From the IMG/VR virus record IMGVR_UViG_3300005399_000078, positions 1-26,793 of that record: a stretch of DNA of 26,793 bases. The stretch is one strand, 5' to 3'. This document shows, in pieces, positions 466 to 25,532 of the stretch (position 1 is the stretch's first letter; each line of letters starts with the position of its first letter). The DNA comes from a virus. The position numbers were made by a program, and so were the translations under genes. The notes under the pieces were generated by a model, which saw only the letters and a program-made list of their open reading frames with translations, had not been told where the DNA came from and searched no databases.

Positions 466-822
466 ATGAACAAGTCTGATGAGACAGATTTGTCTGGTCG
501 GTTACGCATCGAACGGCAAAGCCTGGGGCTCAGTCAGTTCGACGTGGCGGATTTATTGGGGGTGAACCAAAAGACGGTTGCCCGCTGGGAGAAGGAAACA
601 GCGATACCAAGCGACAAGCTGCAGAGCCTTCACGCACATGGATTTGACGTGGTTTATGTACTCACAGGGCAACGGATGCCGAGACCAGCGGAGGGACTCA
701 GCGAACGGGAATCAGCGGTACTTGATAACTTTCGGTCCCTCCCTGAGGAGGACCGGGCGGCGGTACAGCGCCTGACCAATGCGCTTGCGCAATCAGCGGT
801 GAACCAAAAACAAACTGGCTGA
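466..822 (+). CDS. XRE/Cro-C1 family helix-turn-helix repressor (probable prophage immunity repressor)
   Basis: This 118-aa protein has an N-terminal HTH_XRE domain at about residues 10-65. The pattern LRIERQSLGLSQFDVADLLG followed by VNQKTVARWEKETAIPS is a classic scaffold helix, helix 2 and recognition helix. The C-terminal part (FDVVYVLTGQRM, then a charged helix with SERESAVLDNFRSLPEEDRAAV) resembles the dimerisation tail of small Pseudomonas phage regulators; there is no LexA/S24 peptidase domain. It is divergent from the early genes with repeated decamers in the gap, so it probably maintains lysogeny by shutting off the leftward operon. It is also the first gene of a rightward run leading into the accessory cassette. 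Without a protease domain, induction would not use classical RecA-stimulated self-cleavage. Confidence 0.8.
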   Translation: MNKSDETDLSGRLRIERQSLGLSQFDVADLLGVNQKTVARWEKETAIPSDKLQSLHAHGFDVVYVLTGQRMPRPAEGLSERESAVLDNFRSLPEEDRAAVQRLTNALAQSAVNQKQTG

Positions 823-850
823 CCAGCCAGAACAGACAAGGATGCCACCT

Positions 851-1396
851 ATGGCCATGACGCAATGTAAAGAGTGCAAGCACGACGTAGCTACGAGCGC
901 AAAGACCTGCCCGAACTGTGGCGCCATTAATGGCGCTGCCTACAAAGGAATTCGCATCGCCGGCTTGATCTACCTTGCCTTCCTGGCGCTTATCGGCTGG
1001 GGAATCTGGAGCCTGCTCTCCGGACCATCAGATAACAGTACCGCCAACGCCGACACCCAAGCTCCGGCAGCGCCGCAATGGTATGAAGGTGGCACGCTAC
1101 ATGATGCTACTGGGCTTGATTGGCAGAAGGCTGCCTACGCTGACAAGCTGGCCACCGCCGGCGACATTTTGGCCAGGCTCAACAATGTTGGCAGCCTTAG
1201 CCCGCAGATCGCTGGGCGCGTCAATGAAATTGACGATTACAAGCCGCTAGCTGCCGAGCTGGTGACCCAGCTGGATGACGCCTTCGCGCCCGACCCAGAC
1301 TCCGCACAGAATGAACGCATGTTCGCCAATCAGAGCGTGAAGGAAACCAGCGTCATGGTCATGGCAATGATGGGCTGGGTACAGATAGGGGGCTAG
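851..1396 (+). CDS. Zinc-ribbon, single-TM protein with conserved C-terminal domain (accessory cassette gene 1)
   Basis: This is a 181-aa protein. The start at 851 is preferred over the ATG at 842 because AAGG at 838-841 is correctly spaced for it. Residues 6-23 form a zinc ribbon (CKEC, ten residues, CPNC). A transmembrane helix spans about residues 36-56 (IAGLIYLAFLALIGWGIWSLL). After a Ser/Thr/Pro-rich linker comes a domain beginning WYEGGTLHDATGLDWQKA and ending VMVMAMMGW, a pattern I have met in uncharacterised proteobacterial and phage proteins. The zinc ribbon should be cytoplasmic and the C-terminal domain periplasmic. It follows the repressor by 28 bp in the same direction, so it may be expressed in the lysogen. 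Function is unknown; an envelope exclusion or conversion role is inference only. Confidence 0.8.
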   Translation: MAMTQCKECKHDVATSAKTCPNCGAINGAAYKGIRIAGLIYLAFLALIGWGIWSLLSGPSDNSTANADTQAPAAPQWYEGGTLHDATGLDWQKAAYADKLATAGDILARLNNVGSLSPQIAGRVNEIDDYKPLAAELVTQLDDAFAPDPDSAQNERMFANQSVKETSVMVMAMMGWVQIGG

Positions 1397-1400
1397 GTCC

Positions 1401-1703
1401 ATGCGCTTTGCAATGCTGTTGGTCACCCTAATGGCCCTGGCCAGTCACGGGCAGGCTGCCAACACACCCTGTTCTGGCAGTAAGGGCGGGATCTCCCACT
1501 GTGAAGGTGCAACGTTTGTGTGCAACGACGGCACCGCCAGCGGCTCGCGTAGAGACTGCCGCAGCTACTTTGGTGGCAGCAGCCAGCAGACAATTCAGCC
1601 CGCCACTGGCTCTGCCTGCCCATGTAGCGGCAACCAGCTGTGCACAGGCCCACGCGGCGGGCGCTACTGCCTGACCTCGGGCGGGAACAAGAGTTACAAG
1701 TGA
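1401..1703 (+). CDS. Secreted cysteine-rich small protein (accessory cassette gene 2)
   Basis: This 100-aa protein has a clear signal peptide (MRFAMLLVTLMALASHGQA), with cleavage likely before ANTPCSG. The mature part has eight cysteines, suggesting disulfides and a periplasmic or extracellular location. The first half (PCSGSKGGISHCEGATFVCN through RRDC) resembles a short Cys-rich domain seen in many uncharacterised proteobacterial secreted proteins. The last part (CTGPRGGRYCLTSGGNKSYK) matches the general 'TGPRGG-Y ... G-K-Y' motif found at the end of several small adaptor-like proteins. It starts 4 bp after the zinc-ribbon gene. No enzymatic motif is visible. Partner or target is unknown. 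Confidence 0.75.
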   Translation: MRFAMLLVTLMALASHGQAANTPCSGSKGGISHCEGATFVCNDGTASGSRRDCRSYFGGSSQQTIQPATGSACPCSGNQLCTGPRGGRYCLTSGGNKSYK

Positions 1704-1738
1704 AACACCCAACCAACCCGCAATAAAAAGGAGCAACC

Positions 1739-1909
1739 ATGGCTGACGATAAGAAGCCTCAGAACACACCGAGTCCAAGACCTAGCAACGATTCCCGCGA
1801 TGGCGGCAGCCATCACCGCAGCGATGATTCGAGCGGGAGGATACAAACCAATAAAGACACTACAATCATGGAAAGCAGACCAACACCAAGGCCCGGCCCC
1901 AAAAAATGA
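1739..1909 (+). CDS. 56-aa disordered basic/proline-rich protein (accessory cassette gene 3)
   Basis: This short gene starts with ATG at 1739 and ends with TGA at 1907-1909. It is preceded by a strong Shine-Dalgarno (AAAAGGAG at about 1727-1734) at good spacing. Its stop overlaps the start of the next gene as ATGA at 1906-1909, a typical translational coupling. The product (starting MADDKKPQNTPSPRPSNDSR, ending RPTPRPGPKK) has no hydrophobic core and is rich in Pro, Ser, Asp, Lys and Arg, so it is probably disordered. It could be a small partner of the downstream membrane protein or mainly a coupling leader. Evidence for it being real is the ribosome-binding site and the ATGA junction; no homologue is recognised. 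Confidence 0.6.
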   Translation: MADDKKPQNTPSPRPSNDSRDGGSHHRSDDSSGRIQTNKDTTIMESRPTPRPGPKK

Positions 1910-2499
1910 CTGACTCCACGCTAGACGACGACCTTTACGACCTGCGCTTCTATCTGCAGCGGTGTGTGCGTTATCACATGCGCCGTTCTGCCTATTTTTT
2001 GAAGTGGCAGCGCATAACGTCGTTTGTTGGCGTGGTGTTTGGATCTGCAGCACTAACCAGCTTGATTAACCAGGCTGACCCAAGGTTGAGCATCGCTTTT
2101 GCCCTGGTGGTGACGGTGATGTCTGCCTTTGACCTGGTGGTGGGTACCGGCCAACACGCCTGGCTGCACAACGACTTGCGCAAGCGGTTTTTGGAGCAGC
2201 TGGGTGTGCTGGACGCCCAGCAGGTAACACCAGAGCTGCTGGCCGACGTGCGGCACCAGATACGGCGCATTGAGGCAGACGAACCAGCAGACCGCGTGAT
2301 GGTTAACCTGATTGCCACCAATGATGTGATTCGCTCTACCTTTGACAGGGACGAGGTGGAAGAGCACGTCTATGACATAGGCTGGTGCAAGCGCGTGACC
2401 GCCAACCTGATTGACTGGGGCATTGACCAGTACCGCACCAAGGCACAAGCCAAAGAAGACGCAGAGGCCGCGAGCCATAGCACCACAACGGTGGCTTGA
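1906..2499 (+). CDS. SLATT-like two-TM membrane protein (accessory cassette gene 4)
   Basis: This is a 197-aa protein. An N-terminal amphipathic segment (DDLYDLRFYLQRCVRYHMRR, then WQR) leads into a hydrophobic hairpin at about residues 38-83 (ITSFVGVVFGSAALTSLI, a short DPRLS turn, then IAFALVVTVMSAFDLVVGT). A cytoplasmic helical region follows (LHNDLRKRFLEQLG to residue 180). This layout, with a charged helix before a TM hairpin and a long C-terminal helix bundle, is that of the SLATT/DUF4231 superfamily. SLATT proteins are predicted pore-forming effectors associated with SMODS nucleotidyltransferases and SLOG proteins in defence systems. No SMODS or SLOG partner is present here. It is translationally coupled to the 56-aa gene and ends 8 bp from the convergent end of D. 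A phage-exclusion role is inferred, not shown. Confidence 0.65.
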   Translation: MTDSTLDDDLYDLRFYLQRCVRYHMRRSAYFLKWQRITSFVGVVFGSAALTSLINQADPRLSIAFALVVTVMSAFDLVVGTGQHAWLHNDLRKRFLEQLGVLDAQQVTPELLADVRHQIRRIEADEPADRVMVNLIATNDVIRSTFDRDEVEEHVYDIGWCKRVTANLIDWGIDQYRTKAQAKEDAEAASHSTTTVA

Positions 2500-21805: not shown

Positions 21806-23578
21806 ATGGCGGGCATGAATACCGCCTTGAACGCCACCAACATGGACAGCCGCCGCCTGGGGAAATTTCTCTATTGGCAGGGCTGGCGCGTCACTGAAAT
21901 TGCCGAGTACGTGGGCGAGAAAGAGCCCACAGTGCACAGCTGGAAAAAGCGCGACGCATGGGACAGGGCCGATACCGTTGAGCGCGTTGGGGGCGCCCTT
22001 GAGGCCCGACTTGTACAACTGATTTTGAAGGATGGCAAGAGCGGCGGCGACTTCAAGGAAATCGACCTATTGCACCGCCAGCTGGAGCGCCAGGCGCGCA
22101 TTCAGCGCTACCAGGGCGGCGGCACGGAAACCGACCTAAACCCCAAAATAGCCAACCGCAACACCGCAGAGCGCAAGCGCAAAGCGCGCAACGACTACAG
22201 CGAGGAACAGGCAGAACGGCTGATGGAAGCCTTCCGCGATTCGCTGTTCGAGTATCAACATGACTGGTTCATGGCTCGGCATGAGCGCACCAGGGCCATT
22301 CTGAAAAGTCGGCAGATCGGGGCCACGTTCTATTTTGCCCGCGAGGCGTTAATCGACGCGATGGAAACCGGGCGCAATCAGATATTTCTGAGTGCGTCGA
22401 AGAGCCAGGCGCACCTGTTCAAACAGTACATTCAGTCGTTTGCCCGCGAGGCGGCAGACCTTGAGCTGTCTGGGGATCCTATCGTGCTGCCAAACGGGGC
22501 CCATATCTACTTTCTGGGCACCAACGCGCGCACCGCCCAGGGCTACCACGGAAACTTCTACTTTGACGAATTCTTCTGGACGTTCCGGTTTGAAGAGCTC
22601 AACAAGGTGGCCAGCGGCATGGCCATGCAGAAGCAATACCGGAAAACCTATTTCAGCACCCCCAGCTCGATGGCGCACCAGGCGTACCCCTTCTGGACGG
22701 GCGAGCGGTTCAACAAGCGGCGAGCCAAAAAGGACCGGGTAGACATTGACGTGTCCCACTCGACGCTGCAGATGGGGCACCGGGGCGAGGATAAGATCTG
22801 GCGCCAGATTGTGACCATTCTGGATGCAGAGGCGCGCGGCTGCGATCTGTTCGACGTTGAAGAACTGCGCATGGAGTACAGCGCAGAGGCGTTTGAAAAC
22901 TTGCTGATGTGCCAGTTTGTGGACGACGGCGCGAGCATCTTCCCGCTGGCCATGCTGCAACCGTGCATGGTCGATACCTGGGACGTTTGGGCAGAGGATT
23001 ACAAGCCCCACGCCATACGCCCATTCGGTGATCGCCAGGTGTGGATCGGGTACGACCCGGCAGAGTCTGGCGACAGTGCGGGCCTGATCGTGGTCGCTCC
23101 GCCTGCTGTGCCGGGTGGCAAATTCCGGGTGCTGGAGCGCCACCAGTTCCGGGGCATGGACTTTGCCGCCCAGGCCGAATTCATCCACTCAATCACAAAG
23201 CGCTATTGGGTCACCTATATCGGCATCGACGCCACCGGCATGGGTTCGGGCGTGGCGCAGTTGGTGAAACAGTTCTTCCCGGGCGTTACCACCTTCAACT
23301 ACTCGCCAGAGATCAAAACGCGCCTGGTGCTCAAAGCCTATGACGTGATCAACAAAGGCCGGCTGGAGTTCGACGCCGGCTGGACTGACCTGGCGCAATC
23401 GCTGATGGCGATACGCAAAACCATGACCGCCAGCGGGCGGCAGTACACCTACACCGCCAGCCGTACCGATGAAATCGGCCACGCGGATCTGGCTTGGGCC
23501 CTGTTCCACGCCCTGCAAAACGAACCCCTTGAAGGCCAGACCGTGCGCAACACCGGCCGGATCGTCCTTTCTTCCTGA
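21806..23578 (+). CDS. P: Terminase large subunit (ATPase/motor) gpP
   Basis: This is a 590-aa protein, equal in length to P2 gpP. An N-terminal HTH region (FLYWQGWRVTEIAEYVGEKE, PTVHSWKKRDAWDR) is followed by ATPase motifs: Walker A-like KSRQIGATFYFAREALID and Walker B FYFDEFFW. The C-terminal nuclease-type fold shows acidic residues in VWIGYDPAESGD and YIGIDATGMGSG. It powers DNA packaging with gpM. The start is uncertain: ATGs at 21806, 21815 and 21842 all lack a good ribosome site; 21806 is chosen because it gives the P2 length, but the late-promoter position favours 21815 or later. Confidence 0.95.
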   Translation: MAGMNTALNATNMDSRRLGKFLYWQGWRVTEIAEYVGEKEPTVHSWKKRDAWDRADTVERVGGALEARLVQLILKDGKSGGDFKEIDLLHRQLERQARIQRYQGGGTETDLNPKIANRNTAERKRKARNDYSEEQAERLMEAFRDSLFEYQHDWFMARHERTRAILKSRQIGATFYFAREALIDAMETGRNQIFLSASKSQAHLFKQYIQSFAREAADLELSGDPIVLPNGAHIYFLGTNARTAQGYHGNFYFDEFFWTFRFEELNKVASGMAMQKQYRKTYFSTPSSMAHQAYPFWTGERFNKRRAKKDRVDIDVSHSTLQMGHRGEDKIWRQIVTILDAEARGCDLFDVEELRMEYSAEAFENLLMCQFVDDGASIFPLAMLQPCMVDTWDVWAEDYKPHAIRPFGDRQVWIGYDPAESGDSAGLIVVAPPAVPGGKFRVLERHQFRGMDFAAQAEFIHSITKRYWVTYIGIDATGMGSGVAQLVKQFFPGVTTFNYSPEIKTRLVLKAYDVINKGRLEFDAGWTDLAQSLMAIRKTMTASGRQYTYTASRTDEIGHADLAWALFHALQNEPLEGQTVRNTGRIVLSS

Positions 23579-23592
23579 TGGAGAACCACCCC

Positions 23593-24597
23593 ATGGATCA
23601 GCAAGCAACCGCCGCAACGCCCTCAAAGGCTACCTGTTTCAGCTTCGGCGACCCGATGCCAGTGATGGAAGGGCGCGATATTCTGGATTATGCCGAGTGT
23701 TGGTTGAACGGTCGCTGGTATGAGCCGCCTGTCAGCTTTAACGGGCTGGCCAAGGCGTTTCGCGCGGGGATCCACCACAGCAGCGCAATCTATTTCAAAC
23801 GCAACCTGCTGTCGGGCACCTTCATTCCGCACAAGCACCTCAGCCGCCAGGCCTTCGACCGCTACGCGCTGGAGACGCTGACCTTTGGCAATGGCTACCT
23901 GGAGCGCAAGGAATCGCGGATCGGCACCACCATGACGCTGGAACCGATGCTGTCCAAGTACATGCGGGTGGGCAAGGATCCGGGGCAATACTTCATGGTG
24001 CACGGCTGGAAAAAGGAACATGAATTCACGGCCGGTTCGGTGTTCCACCTGCTTGAGCCGGACGTTAACCAGGAAATCTACGGCCTACCCGAATACCTCA
24101 GCGCCCTGCAGTCAGCCTGGTTGAATGAAGGTGCGACGCTGTTCCGCCGCAAGTATTACAACAACGGCAGTCACGCCGGGTTCATCCTCTACATGACCGA
24201 TGCGGCGCAAAACGAAGAGGATATCGACGCCTTGCAACTGGCCATGCAGAGCGCCAAGGGGCCGGGCAACTTCCGCAACCTGTTCGTCTACGCCCCGAAC
24301 GGCAAAAAAGACGGGCTGCAGCTGATCCCGGTCAGCGAGGTGGCGGCCAAAGATGACTTTTTCAATATCAAAAACGTCTCGCGCGATGACCAGTTGGCAG
24401 CTCACCGGATCCCGCCCCAACTGATGGGCGTGGTGCCCAGCAACGCCGGCGGCTTCGGCAGCATCACCCAAGCCGCCACGGTGTTTGCTATCAATGAGCT
24501 GCAGCCCCTGCAGCGGCGCCTGGCCCAGGTGAACGAATGGCTCGGCGAAGAGGTGGTCAGGTTCAAAGACTATGAAATCCCGAACCTGGGCAGCTGA
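23593..24597 (+). CDS. Q: Portal protein gpQ
   Basis: This 334-aa protein is homologous to the P2 portal gpQ (344 aa), the dodecamer at the packaging vertex. Conserved blocks are WYEPPVSFNGLAKAFRAGIH, VFHLLEPDVNQEIYGLPEYL, GATLFRRKYYNNGSHAGFIL, SAKGPGNFRNLFVYAPNGKK and KNVSRDDQLAAHRIPPQLMG. The ATG at 23593 has GGAG 9 nt upstream; the ATG at 23578, overlapping the P stop, has none. It is the last gene of the rightward P-Q operon and is followed by a terminator. Confidence 0.97.
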   Translation: MDQQATAATPSKATCFSFGDPMPVMEGRDILDYAECWLNGRWYEPPVSFNGLAKAFRAGIHHSSAIYFKRNLLSGTFIPHKHLSRQAFDRYALETLTFGNGYLERKESRIGTTMTLEPMLSKYMRVGKDPGQYFMVHGWKKEHEFTAGSVFHLLEPDVNQEIYGLPEYLSALQSAWLNEGATLFRRKYYNNGSHAGFILYMTDAAQNEEDIDALQLAMQSAKGPGNFRNLFVYAPNGKKDGLQLIPVSEVAAKDDFFNIKNVSRDDQLAAHRIPPQLMGVVPSNAGGFGSITQAATVFAINELQPLQRRLAQVNEWLGEEVVRFKDYEIPNLGS

Positions 24598-24638: not shown

Positions 24639-25062
24639 GTGCCCACGCGGTCGAAGATGAAGCCGTTACCAGCCGATAACGCCCCAGCAAATCATAACAT
24701 TTCAGACCTTCAACCACTACCAAAAACGGCACGCAGCCCAGTATCCACGCGGGTTCCAGACGAGTGGCACCGCCTGAGCTGGGCGCGCCGCCCGGATCCG
24801 CTCGCCTCGACCAGGACAGCCCCACCCGCACCCCCGCCACCCCCTCCCTCGACCCGCCGCGCGCCCTCGTCCCCACACCTCACCTGCGGTCTAAACCTGT
24901 TGGTTTTGTTGCACCCATGCAGCCCCCTGCAGGCCGCACAGGCGCTGCGCTTCCGGCAGGCAAAGCATCGGGCCGGATTCATGCGGAATCATGCGCAGAG
25001 CGCGTTTTAGAGCGCCCCCTTTCCATCAGCAGCAGCACAAAAGTAGACGGGGGTCGGAAAAC
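24639..25062. other. Gene-free GC-rich segment, candidate cos region
   Basis: No convincing gene is seen. Open frames here have no ribosome sites and low-complexity products. Around 24800-24890 the plus strand is strongly C-rich and G-poor (runs such as CACCCGCACCCCCGCC). In P2 the cos site lies just outside Q, at this location, and P2 cohesive ends are G-rich on one strand, so cos is likely in this segment. No exact match to a known cos sequence could be made from memory. Confidence 0.3.
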
Positions 25063-25338
25063 GGTAATCCGGTAATTTCGGGGGCAGAATAAAATGCAAG
25101 ACATTGTTTTATATTGCTTTTTTCGATTACCGAAGCGCGGTAATAGACGGTGATTTAAAGGGTAATTTTTACGCAAGTCATTGATTTTAAAGGGATCACG
25201 AAAGCCAAATTATTACCAAGTAATAAGGTCATTTTCTAACCTCTGATAACCGTTTTATTACCTTCCAGTAATTCTGGTTAACAGACTGATATATATAGGA
25301 ATACTTCTGCTTTTTATCGCTATCTAACTTTTATTACC
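25063..25338. repeat. Array of eight GGTAAT/ATTACC hexamers in an AT-rich segment
   Basis: GGTAAT occurs on the plus strand at 25063, 25071, 25139 and 25161 and as ATTACC at 25126, 25212, 25257 and 25333. The copies at 25126-25144 form an inverted repeat (ATTACCG...CGGTAAT). Chance expectation for one hexamer on both strands in 276 bp is about 0.13. The segment is AT-rich against a GC-rich background and contains no gene. It lies between Q/cos and the host gene, where integrase arm sites, accessory-protein sites or iterons are plausible. Near-copies (GATAACC at 25245, AGTAAT at 25268) suggest a slightly looser consensus. Confidence 0.75.
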
Positions 25339-25532
25339 ACTTCCCGATGCCCGAAATTCTGAGCGGGCAGGCGCGCCCGCCGGCGGCAGTATCGAAGGCG
25401 CTGCGCAGATCCACACAGGCACAAAAAAAGCCGCTCTCGCGGCCTTCTCTGCAGACTCTGTCACCTCAAACGTATGGTTAACGGACGTATCGGGCCCCCG
25501 CAACCAGTTTCAAAACCGCTGATTGGTTAACG
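25275..25532 (+). repeat. Three direct copies of TGGTTAAC
   Basis: TGGTTAAC occurs at 25275-25282, 25475-25482 and 25524-25531; the last two share TGGTTAACG. The third lies in the loop of the terminator at 25512-25550. They are inside the junction region, so they may be integrase- or host-factor-related, but the repeat is short. Confidence 0.45.
25423..25443 (-). terminator. Leftward rho-independent terminator near the prophage edge
   Basis: On the minus strand GCCGC, loop GAGA and GCGGC (25430-25443) are followed by seven Ts (25423-25429). No leftward gene is seen immediately upstream of it, so it may insulate the prophage from host transcription, or belong to a host locus split by integration. 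Confidence 0.65.

What the first reader, a model, noticed from the sequence alone, without database searches (positions are those of the whole stretch)
25063..25338. Eight GGTAAT hexamers clustered in 276 bp at the prophage edge
Four copies on each strand, including one inverted pair, lie in an AT-rich non-coding segment in an otherwise GC-rich window. This is far above chance. Candidate roles: integrase arm-type sites for an attP arm left on this side, binding sites of a phage excision or partition protein, or an origin-like iteron set. Irregular spacing favours arm sites or a nucleoprotein complex rather than classic iterons.
Basis: partly seen in the sequence, partly recalled or inferred. 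Interest (0 to 1): 0.6.

Follow-up and report, generated by a model that had tools for sequence, protein, structure and literature searches.

The report
Probable replication origin of P2-like phages
The cluster of short repeats beside the packaging site of this P2-like bacterial virus is most likely its DNA replication start site: a 13-position array whose geometry is kept across many related phages while the repeated DNA "word" is replaced as a set together with the replication protein.

Summary
In detail: eight exact GGTAAT, four per strand, span 25063-25338 (0.29 expected in 276 bp; none of 3000 shuffles reaches 8). The segment is 66% AT between about 40% AT flanks. It lies between a P2-type cosN (24866-24884) and the attR core in a tRNA-Met 3' end (25494-25507).

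The "irregular" spacing is a conserved scaffold: 13 positions with fixed order, orientation and distances (0, 8/9, 63, 75, 85, 97, IHF site at about 110, 148, 163, 172, 183, 194, 259, 268). Divergent Peduoviridae share it. Other phages carry a different word at the same positions (CCTAAC 13 of 13; TGTCAG 9 of 10).

Integrase arm sites are not supported: integrases of different families sit beside the same array, and in one prophage an int gene lies between array and tRNA. Terminase sites are unlikely: phi3 and JFK share about 99% identical late regions but have different words beside diverged rep genes; all 25 gpA-type relatives tested lack the array.

The array tracks a Toprim primase-helicase (PHROG 1139). 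Its C-terminal half resembles SCCmec Cch and SaPI Rep, which bind iteron origins. Best reading: a SaPI/PICI-like replication origin. This is inferred, not tested; the window lacks its own rep gene.

The parts
25054..25349 (.). Whole array: 13-position scaffold bounded by an imperfect inverted repeat (TCGGAAAACGGTAAT ... ATTACCACTTCCCGATG; consensus in relatives TCGGAAAAAGGTAAT ... ATTACCTTTTTCCGATG). Probable replication origin.
   Evidence: function inferred
25063..25068 (+). GGTAAT, scaffold position 0
25071..25076 (+). GGTAAT, position 8
25126..25131 (-). GGTAAT, position 63
25139..25144 (+). GGTAAT, position 76
25149..25154 (+). GGTGAT, one-mismatch site at position 86, where relatives have GGTAAT
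25161..25166 (+). GGTAAT, position 98
25174..25186 (-). IHF-consensus site AATCAATGACTTG (WATCAANNNNTTR), part of the element AAGTCATTGATTT shared with relatives
   Evidence: binding inferred
25212..25217 (-). GGTAAT, position 149
25257..25262 (-). GGTAAT, position 194
25333..25338 (-). GGTAAT, position 270
25090..25129 (.). Most AT-rich 40 bp of the array (78% AT), flanked by sites: candidate melting region
   Evidence: role inferred
24866..24884 (-). cosN-like site (reverse complement GGTGAGGTGTGGGGACGAG; compare Smp131 GGCGTGGCGGGGAGACGAG, P2 GGCGAGGCGGGGAAAGCAC), 19/19 identical in L083
24910..24995 (.). TGCACCCATGCA and CATGCGGAATCATGCG repeats between cosN and array; similar CATGCA pairs occur near cos in gpA-type relatives that lack the array, so candidate terminase sites
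   Evidence: inference
24734..24759 (-). Conserved hairpin-like element AACCCGCGTGGATACTGGGCTG, left of cos here but inside the array in Dobby, G042, G068
   Evidence: role unknown
25494..25507 (+). attR core GCCCCCGCAACCAG = 3' end of tRNA-Met(CAT)
23578..24597 (+). portal protein gene (Q)

Best explanation
The array is the replication origin of a P2-like prophage that replicates with a fused Toprim primase-helicase (PHROG 1139) instead of P2 gpA. The initiator, most likely that Rep through a C-terminal winged-helix-like domain, binds the hexamers. IHF probably bends the centre, and an AT-rich stretch flanked by sites melts so that the helicase can load, as in SaPI/PICI rep-ori modules. The partly mirrored sites would suit two helicase rings facing apart. 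Shown here: the array, its conserved geometry, word switching, association with Rep, and the fold resemblance. Inferred: Rep binding, melting, IHF binding and origin activity.
For: (1) In complete phages the array is the strongest clustered hexamer of the genome: Dobby GGTAAT x12, Smp131 AGGTAA x9, phi3 GGAACA x16, JFK CTTCCA x11. (2) It lies directly after rep in phi3 and JFK. (3) phi3 and JFK are about 99% identical over the late region (P 99.6%, N 100%, M 94%), but Rep is 57% identical and the word differs. (4) UFJF_PfPro is a natural recombinant: terminase phi3-like (P 72%, M 63%), Rep Dobby-like (51%), and its TGTCAG array sits on the Dobby scaffold. (5) All 25 gpA-type (PF05840) records lack array and element; Toprim-Rep records that contain cosN have the array. 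(6) Among 37 Halopseudomonas genomes the same five carry Rep and the cos-array region. (7) Rep's C-terminal half models onto SCCmec Cch (5DGK, Z 9.0) and SaPIBov1 Rep (8TCH, Z 6.4), its last domain weakly onto PriRep1 with DNA (7PDS, Z 3.7). SaPI Rep binds iteron origins by its C-terminal domain (PMC7581432); PICI origins have two iteron sets flanking an AT-rich region (PMC6092414). (8) Window versus L083: 47/48 site bases identical against 190/228 between sites (P=0.003).
Against: No binding or replication data. The window and L083 contain no rep gene; it is inferred from relatives. No residue set or region of Rep clearly tracks the word, so another protein of the module could bind. In most phages the array sits about 175-220 bp from cosN, which also fits a packaging role. 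Rep models have modest confidence (mean pLDDT 65) and the SaPI Rep Z-scores are middling. Associations are partly phylogenetic. Raw cumulative GC skew was uninformative. L089's array word could not be placed on the scaffold.
Confidence: 0.77

Rival explanations
1. Terminase-binding cosB: the small subunit gpM binds the hexamers with IHF next to cosN, as lambda gpNu1 does at its R sites.
For: Array about 175-220 bp from cosN in most phages; an IHF-type site between repeats, as in lambda cosB (own knowledge).
Against: phi3 and JFK have near-identical terminases but different words and arrays beside rep. UFJF has a phi3-like terminase with a Dobby-scaffold array. 25 gpA-type relatives with homologous packaging genes lack the array. 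Separate TGCA repeats lie between cosN and array.
Confidence: 0.1
2. Integrase arm-type sites (or Xis/Cox sites) of the attP arm.
For: Array 155 bp from the attR core; IHF site; arm sites are short and repeated.
Against: Integrases with Arm-DNA-bind_2 and Arm-DNA-bind_3 arm domains sit beside the same GGTAAT array. In G037 the int gene lies between array and tRNA-Pro. G027/G028 appear to share G042's integrase by N-terminal sequence yet have a degenerate array. Other repeats near the core fit arm sites better: TGGGAAC pairs in several relatives, CGTAAC x7 in Dobby.
Confidence: 0.04
3. Another replication-linked complex bound by a different early protein: copy control, partition or immunity, not the origin itself.
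For: No word-determining region found in Rep; other early genes also diverge between phi3 and JFK.
Against: Rep is the one shared large protein, with a fold related to iteron-binding initiators; array directly after rep in phi3 and JFK as in PICIs.
Confidence: 0.09

Closest known systems
SaPI / PICI pri-rep-ori module (SaPIBov1 Rep, PriRep1, E. coli PICIs)
   Same: Primase plus self-loading helicase; multiple short iterons; AT-rich segment flanked by iterons; iteron sequence differs between elements; directly 3' of rep in phi3 and JFK
   Different: In the window's type the array lies next to cos, about 6 kb past rep on the circular map in Dobby; Toprim primase; one 13-position scaffold of about 275 bp with IHF-type sites; found in full P2-like phages. 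[quoted passage not shown]
Satellite phage P4 alpha protein with ori/crr iterons
   Same: One protein with primase and helicase that acts at short repeats (own knowledge; PMC7145576 for the two activities)
   Different: Primase type, iteron word and layout differ; not compared by alignment here
Phage lambda cosB (R sites with IHF site I1)
   Same: Short repeats around an IHF site near cosN (own knowledge)
   Different: Lambda has three R sites in about 120 bp; here 8-13 sites that track Rep rather than terminase
Phage P2 gpA rolling-circle origin
   Same: Same virion and packaging gene family
   Different: gpA-type relatives have no such array; gpA and Toprim Rep did not co-occur in 38 records

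Membership tests
SaPI/PICI-type iteron origin | Multiple short iterons in sets flanking an AT-rich region | tested here: met
   8-13 sites; most AT-rich 40 bp (78-85% AT) lies between site groups in window, Dobby, Smp131, phi3
SaPI/PICI-type iteron origin | Located immediately 3' of the rep gene | tested here: not met
   Met in phi3 and JFK, not in the window's type, where the array is beside cos. So it works like one, with a moved origin; not filed as a member
SaPI/PICI-type iteron origin | Rep is a Cch/SaPI-Rep-like helicase with a C-terminal DNA-binding domain | tested here: inconclusive
   Predicted fold: 5DGK Z 9.0, 8TCH Z 6.4, 7PDS Z 3.7 for the last domain, modest model confidence
SaPI/PICI-type iteron origin | rep plus ori drives autonomous replication | not testable with these tools
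   needs the bench
Integrase arm-type sites | Motif goes with the integrase and lies on the arms next to the core | tested here: not met
   Different integrase families with the same motif; int gene between array and core in G037
Terminase cosB | Motif goes with the terminase small subunit | tested here: not met
   phi3/JFK and UFJF comparisons
Terminase cosB | Lies close to cosN | tested here: met
   173-218 bp in 17 aligned loci; no P2-type cosN detected in phi3, JFK or UFJF

The most novel reading that the evidence does not exclude
A fixed 13-position origin scaffold on which the whole recognition word has been exchanged in concert several times (GGTAAT, AGTAAT, CCTAAC, CCTGAT, TGTCAG) together with the initiator. 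This would give each phage lineage a private replication code, and would mean that the rep-ori organisation described as exclusive to PICIs is also used by a large group of P2-like phages.
Probability: 0.5. Interest if true: 0.75.

Novelty: new variant of a known kind. Interest (0 to 1): 0.6.

Why it matters
It proposes a replication origin for a large group of P2-like phages (Citexvirus, Smp131-like, Halopseudomonas prophages and others) that lack gpA, a group for which I found no described origin in the literature searched. It links their replication to SaPI/PICI satellites. The same geometry with different words makes co-evolution of an initiator and all its sites directly testable, and gives a marker for predicting phage replication compatibility and for finding initiators and origins in metagenomic phages.

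Tried and rejected
DNA similarity of the region to sequenced phages: no match, because only the sites and spacing are conserved. Raw cumulative GC skew as an origin test: uninformative. Search for a word-determining region or residues in Rep: windowed identities differ by at most 0.09 and only 3 columns separate GGTAAY from CCTRAY phages, no clear cluster. Sequence search of Rep against solved structures: no meaningful hit. The CATGCA count in enteric P2-like phages first looked like another array, but after non-overlapping counting it is at most 5, as in shuffles. Toprim-Rep contigs without an array: those examined have no detectable cosN, so they appear cut before the region rather than true absences. 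KL3 and Milagro have another primase and no such array at cos.

Full report
OBSERVATION. The window is an IMG/VR provirus record of 26,793 bp. Shuffles of the same 276 bp give 0.29 on average and never 8; no hexamer of any kind exceeded 6 copies in 1000 shuffles. The segment is 66% AT between about 40% AT flanks.

CONTEXT. The late genes of a P2-like phage fill the window (P2-type capsid, GpL, tail I, baseplate and portal). To the right of the portal gene come, in order, a P2-type cosN at 24866-24884 (same type as the published Smp131 and P2 ends, PMC3931495), the array, and at 25494-25507 the core GCCCCCGCAACCAG, the 3' end of a tRNA-Met. The empty site is in Pseudomonas abyssi MT5 (L003), and the host gene to the right is 95% identical to that strain's, so the host is a Halopseudomonas. 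The record starts inside the phage, so rep, int and attL are missing.

RELATIVES. A relative in the same site, L083, keeps seven of the eight exact words, and 47 of 48 site bases against 190 of 228 other bases in the array. Five other Halopseudomonas prophages have the array between cos and their attachment site: G042 and G037 with many exact words, G027, G028 and G045 with degenerate ones. Pseudomonas phage Dobby has 12 copies, Smp131 nine AGGTAA, HboP_4908 seven, and many IMG/VR contigs have it.

SCAFFOLD. Aligned to their first site, these arrays use the same positions and orientations: 0>, 8/9>, 63<, 75>, 85>, 97>, (IHF-consensus site at about 110), 148<, 163>, 172<, 183<, 194<, 259<, 268<. 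The first-to-last span is 273-276 bp in most. The outer ends form an inverted repeat, TCGGAAAAAGGTAAT ... ATTACCTTTTTCCGATG. In Dobby 10 of 12 sites are mirror-paired (P=0.00005), in L226 10 of 13 (P=0.0002); the window alone is not significant on this test.

WORD SWITCHING. Phages with another word use the same scaffold: L226 CCTAAC 13 of 13 on template, UFJF_PfPro TGTCAG 9 of 10, L085 CCTGAT 6 of 6, L093 CTAACA 6 of 6, each P<=0.0004 against random placement. The template was derived from Dobby, so these are independent tests. L299 carries an insertion of about 12 bp and fits only in part; L089's word could not be placed.

WHAT RECOGNISES IT. Integrase: G042 has an Arm-DNA-bind_2 integrase and G037 a P4-type Arm-DNA-bind_3 integrase, both with GGTAAT. 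In G037 the int gene lies between array and tRNA-Pro, about 1.5 kb. Terminase: phi3 and JFK are about 99% identical over the late region, yet the early module diverges (Rep 57%) and the array, directly after rep in both, changes from GGAACA to CTTCCA/TGGAAG; L489, with Rep 86% identical to phi3, keeps GGAACA and the spacing. UFJF_PfPro combines a phi3-like terminase with a Dobby-like Rep and has the Dobby scaffold. Among 38 P2-like records, 25 have gpA, 7 have Toprim Rep, none both. The gpA records show no array and no central element; Toprim records with cosN do. Dobby's integrase is 70% identical to UFJF's, so int and rep are not separated by that pair alone, but they are by G037 and G042.

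REP. The protein is PHROG 1139 'DNA primase', about 900 aa. A predicted model shows a DnaG/T7-gp4-like primase part (Z 12-13) and a helicase part like SCCmec Cch (5DGK) and SaPIBov1 Rep (8TCH). The C-terminal half alone gives 5DGK Z 9.0 over 263 residues, 8TCH Z 6.4, and for its last domain weakly 7PDS PriRep1 with dsDNA, Z 3.7. Model confidence is modest. [quoted passage not shown] Here the most AT-rich 40 bp likewise lies between groups of sites.

CONCLUSION. The array is most likely the replication origin, bound by the cognate initiator, probably Rep (0.77). Shown: presence, conserved geometry, word exchange, association with the replication module, and fold resemblance. Inferred: binding, IHF action, melting, and initiation. 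Weak points: no rep gene in the window, no specificity region found in Rep, and the constant closeness to cos in most phages. I found no description of this array in the papers searched, but subscription papers, including the original phiCTX work, were not available.

Noticed in passing
L225 2900-3100, L326 13860-14040, L321 7640-7830, L267, L251: Unrelated phages share another array scaffold around TAAGTCATTGATTTA, lettered GGGTCA, GGTGCA or GGGGCA, beside a small-terminase-like gene and a few kb from a large primase-helicase-like gene: possibly a second word-switched array family.
   Followed up: partly
L235 1336-1560; L230 557-870; L302: Dense arrays (GGGTGA x12, GCGACA x13 and x11) with the same IHF-like element; in L235 next to an AAA_25 helicase gene.
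   Followed up: partly
L485 29662-30013 (KS14); L487 231-582 (FLC5): CCGAGGATCCTCGG-type repeats near the parA gene of plasmid-like Burkholderia phages: candidate parS or iterons.
   Followed up: no
L484 1518-1758 (KL3); L486 29676-29968 (Milagro): GTGGCA x6 next to the other (CHC2) primase: candidate origin of that phage type.
   Followed up: no
window 24734-24759: Conserved hairpin-like element, left of cos here but inside the array in Dobby, G042, G068 and L299; possibly a priming site.
   Followed up: partly
L200, L193, L194, L199, between array and tRNA core: Direct repeats CTGGGAACAC-CTGGGAAC about 60-100 bp from the core: likely the true integrase arm sites of those prophages; Dobby has CGTAAC x7 at 37023-212.
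   Followed up: partly
window 466-2499: HTH repressor, zinc-ribbon membrane protein, and a 197-aa protein with likely membrane segments and no Pfam or PADLOC match, between the repressor region and gene D: probable cargo.
   Followed up: partly
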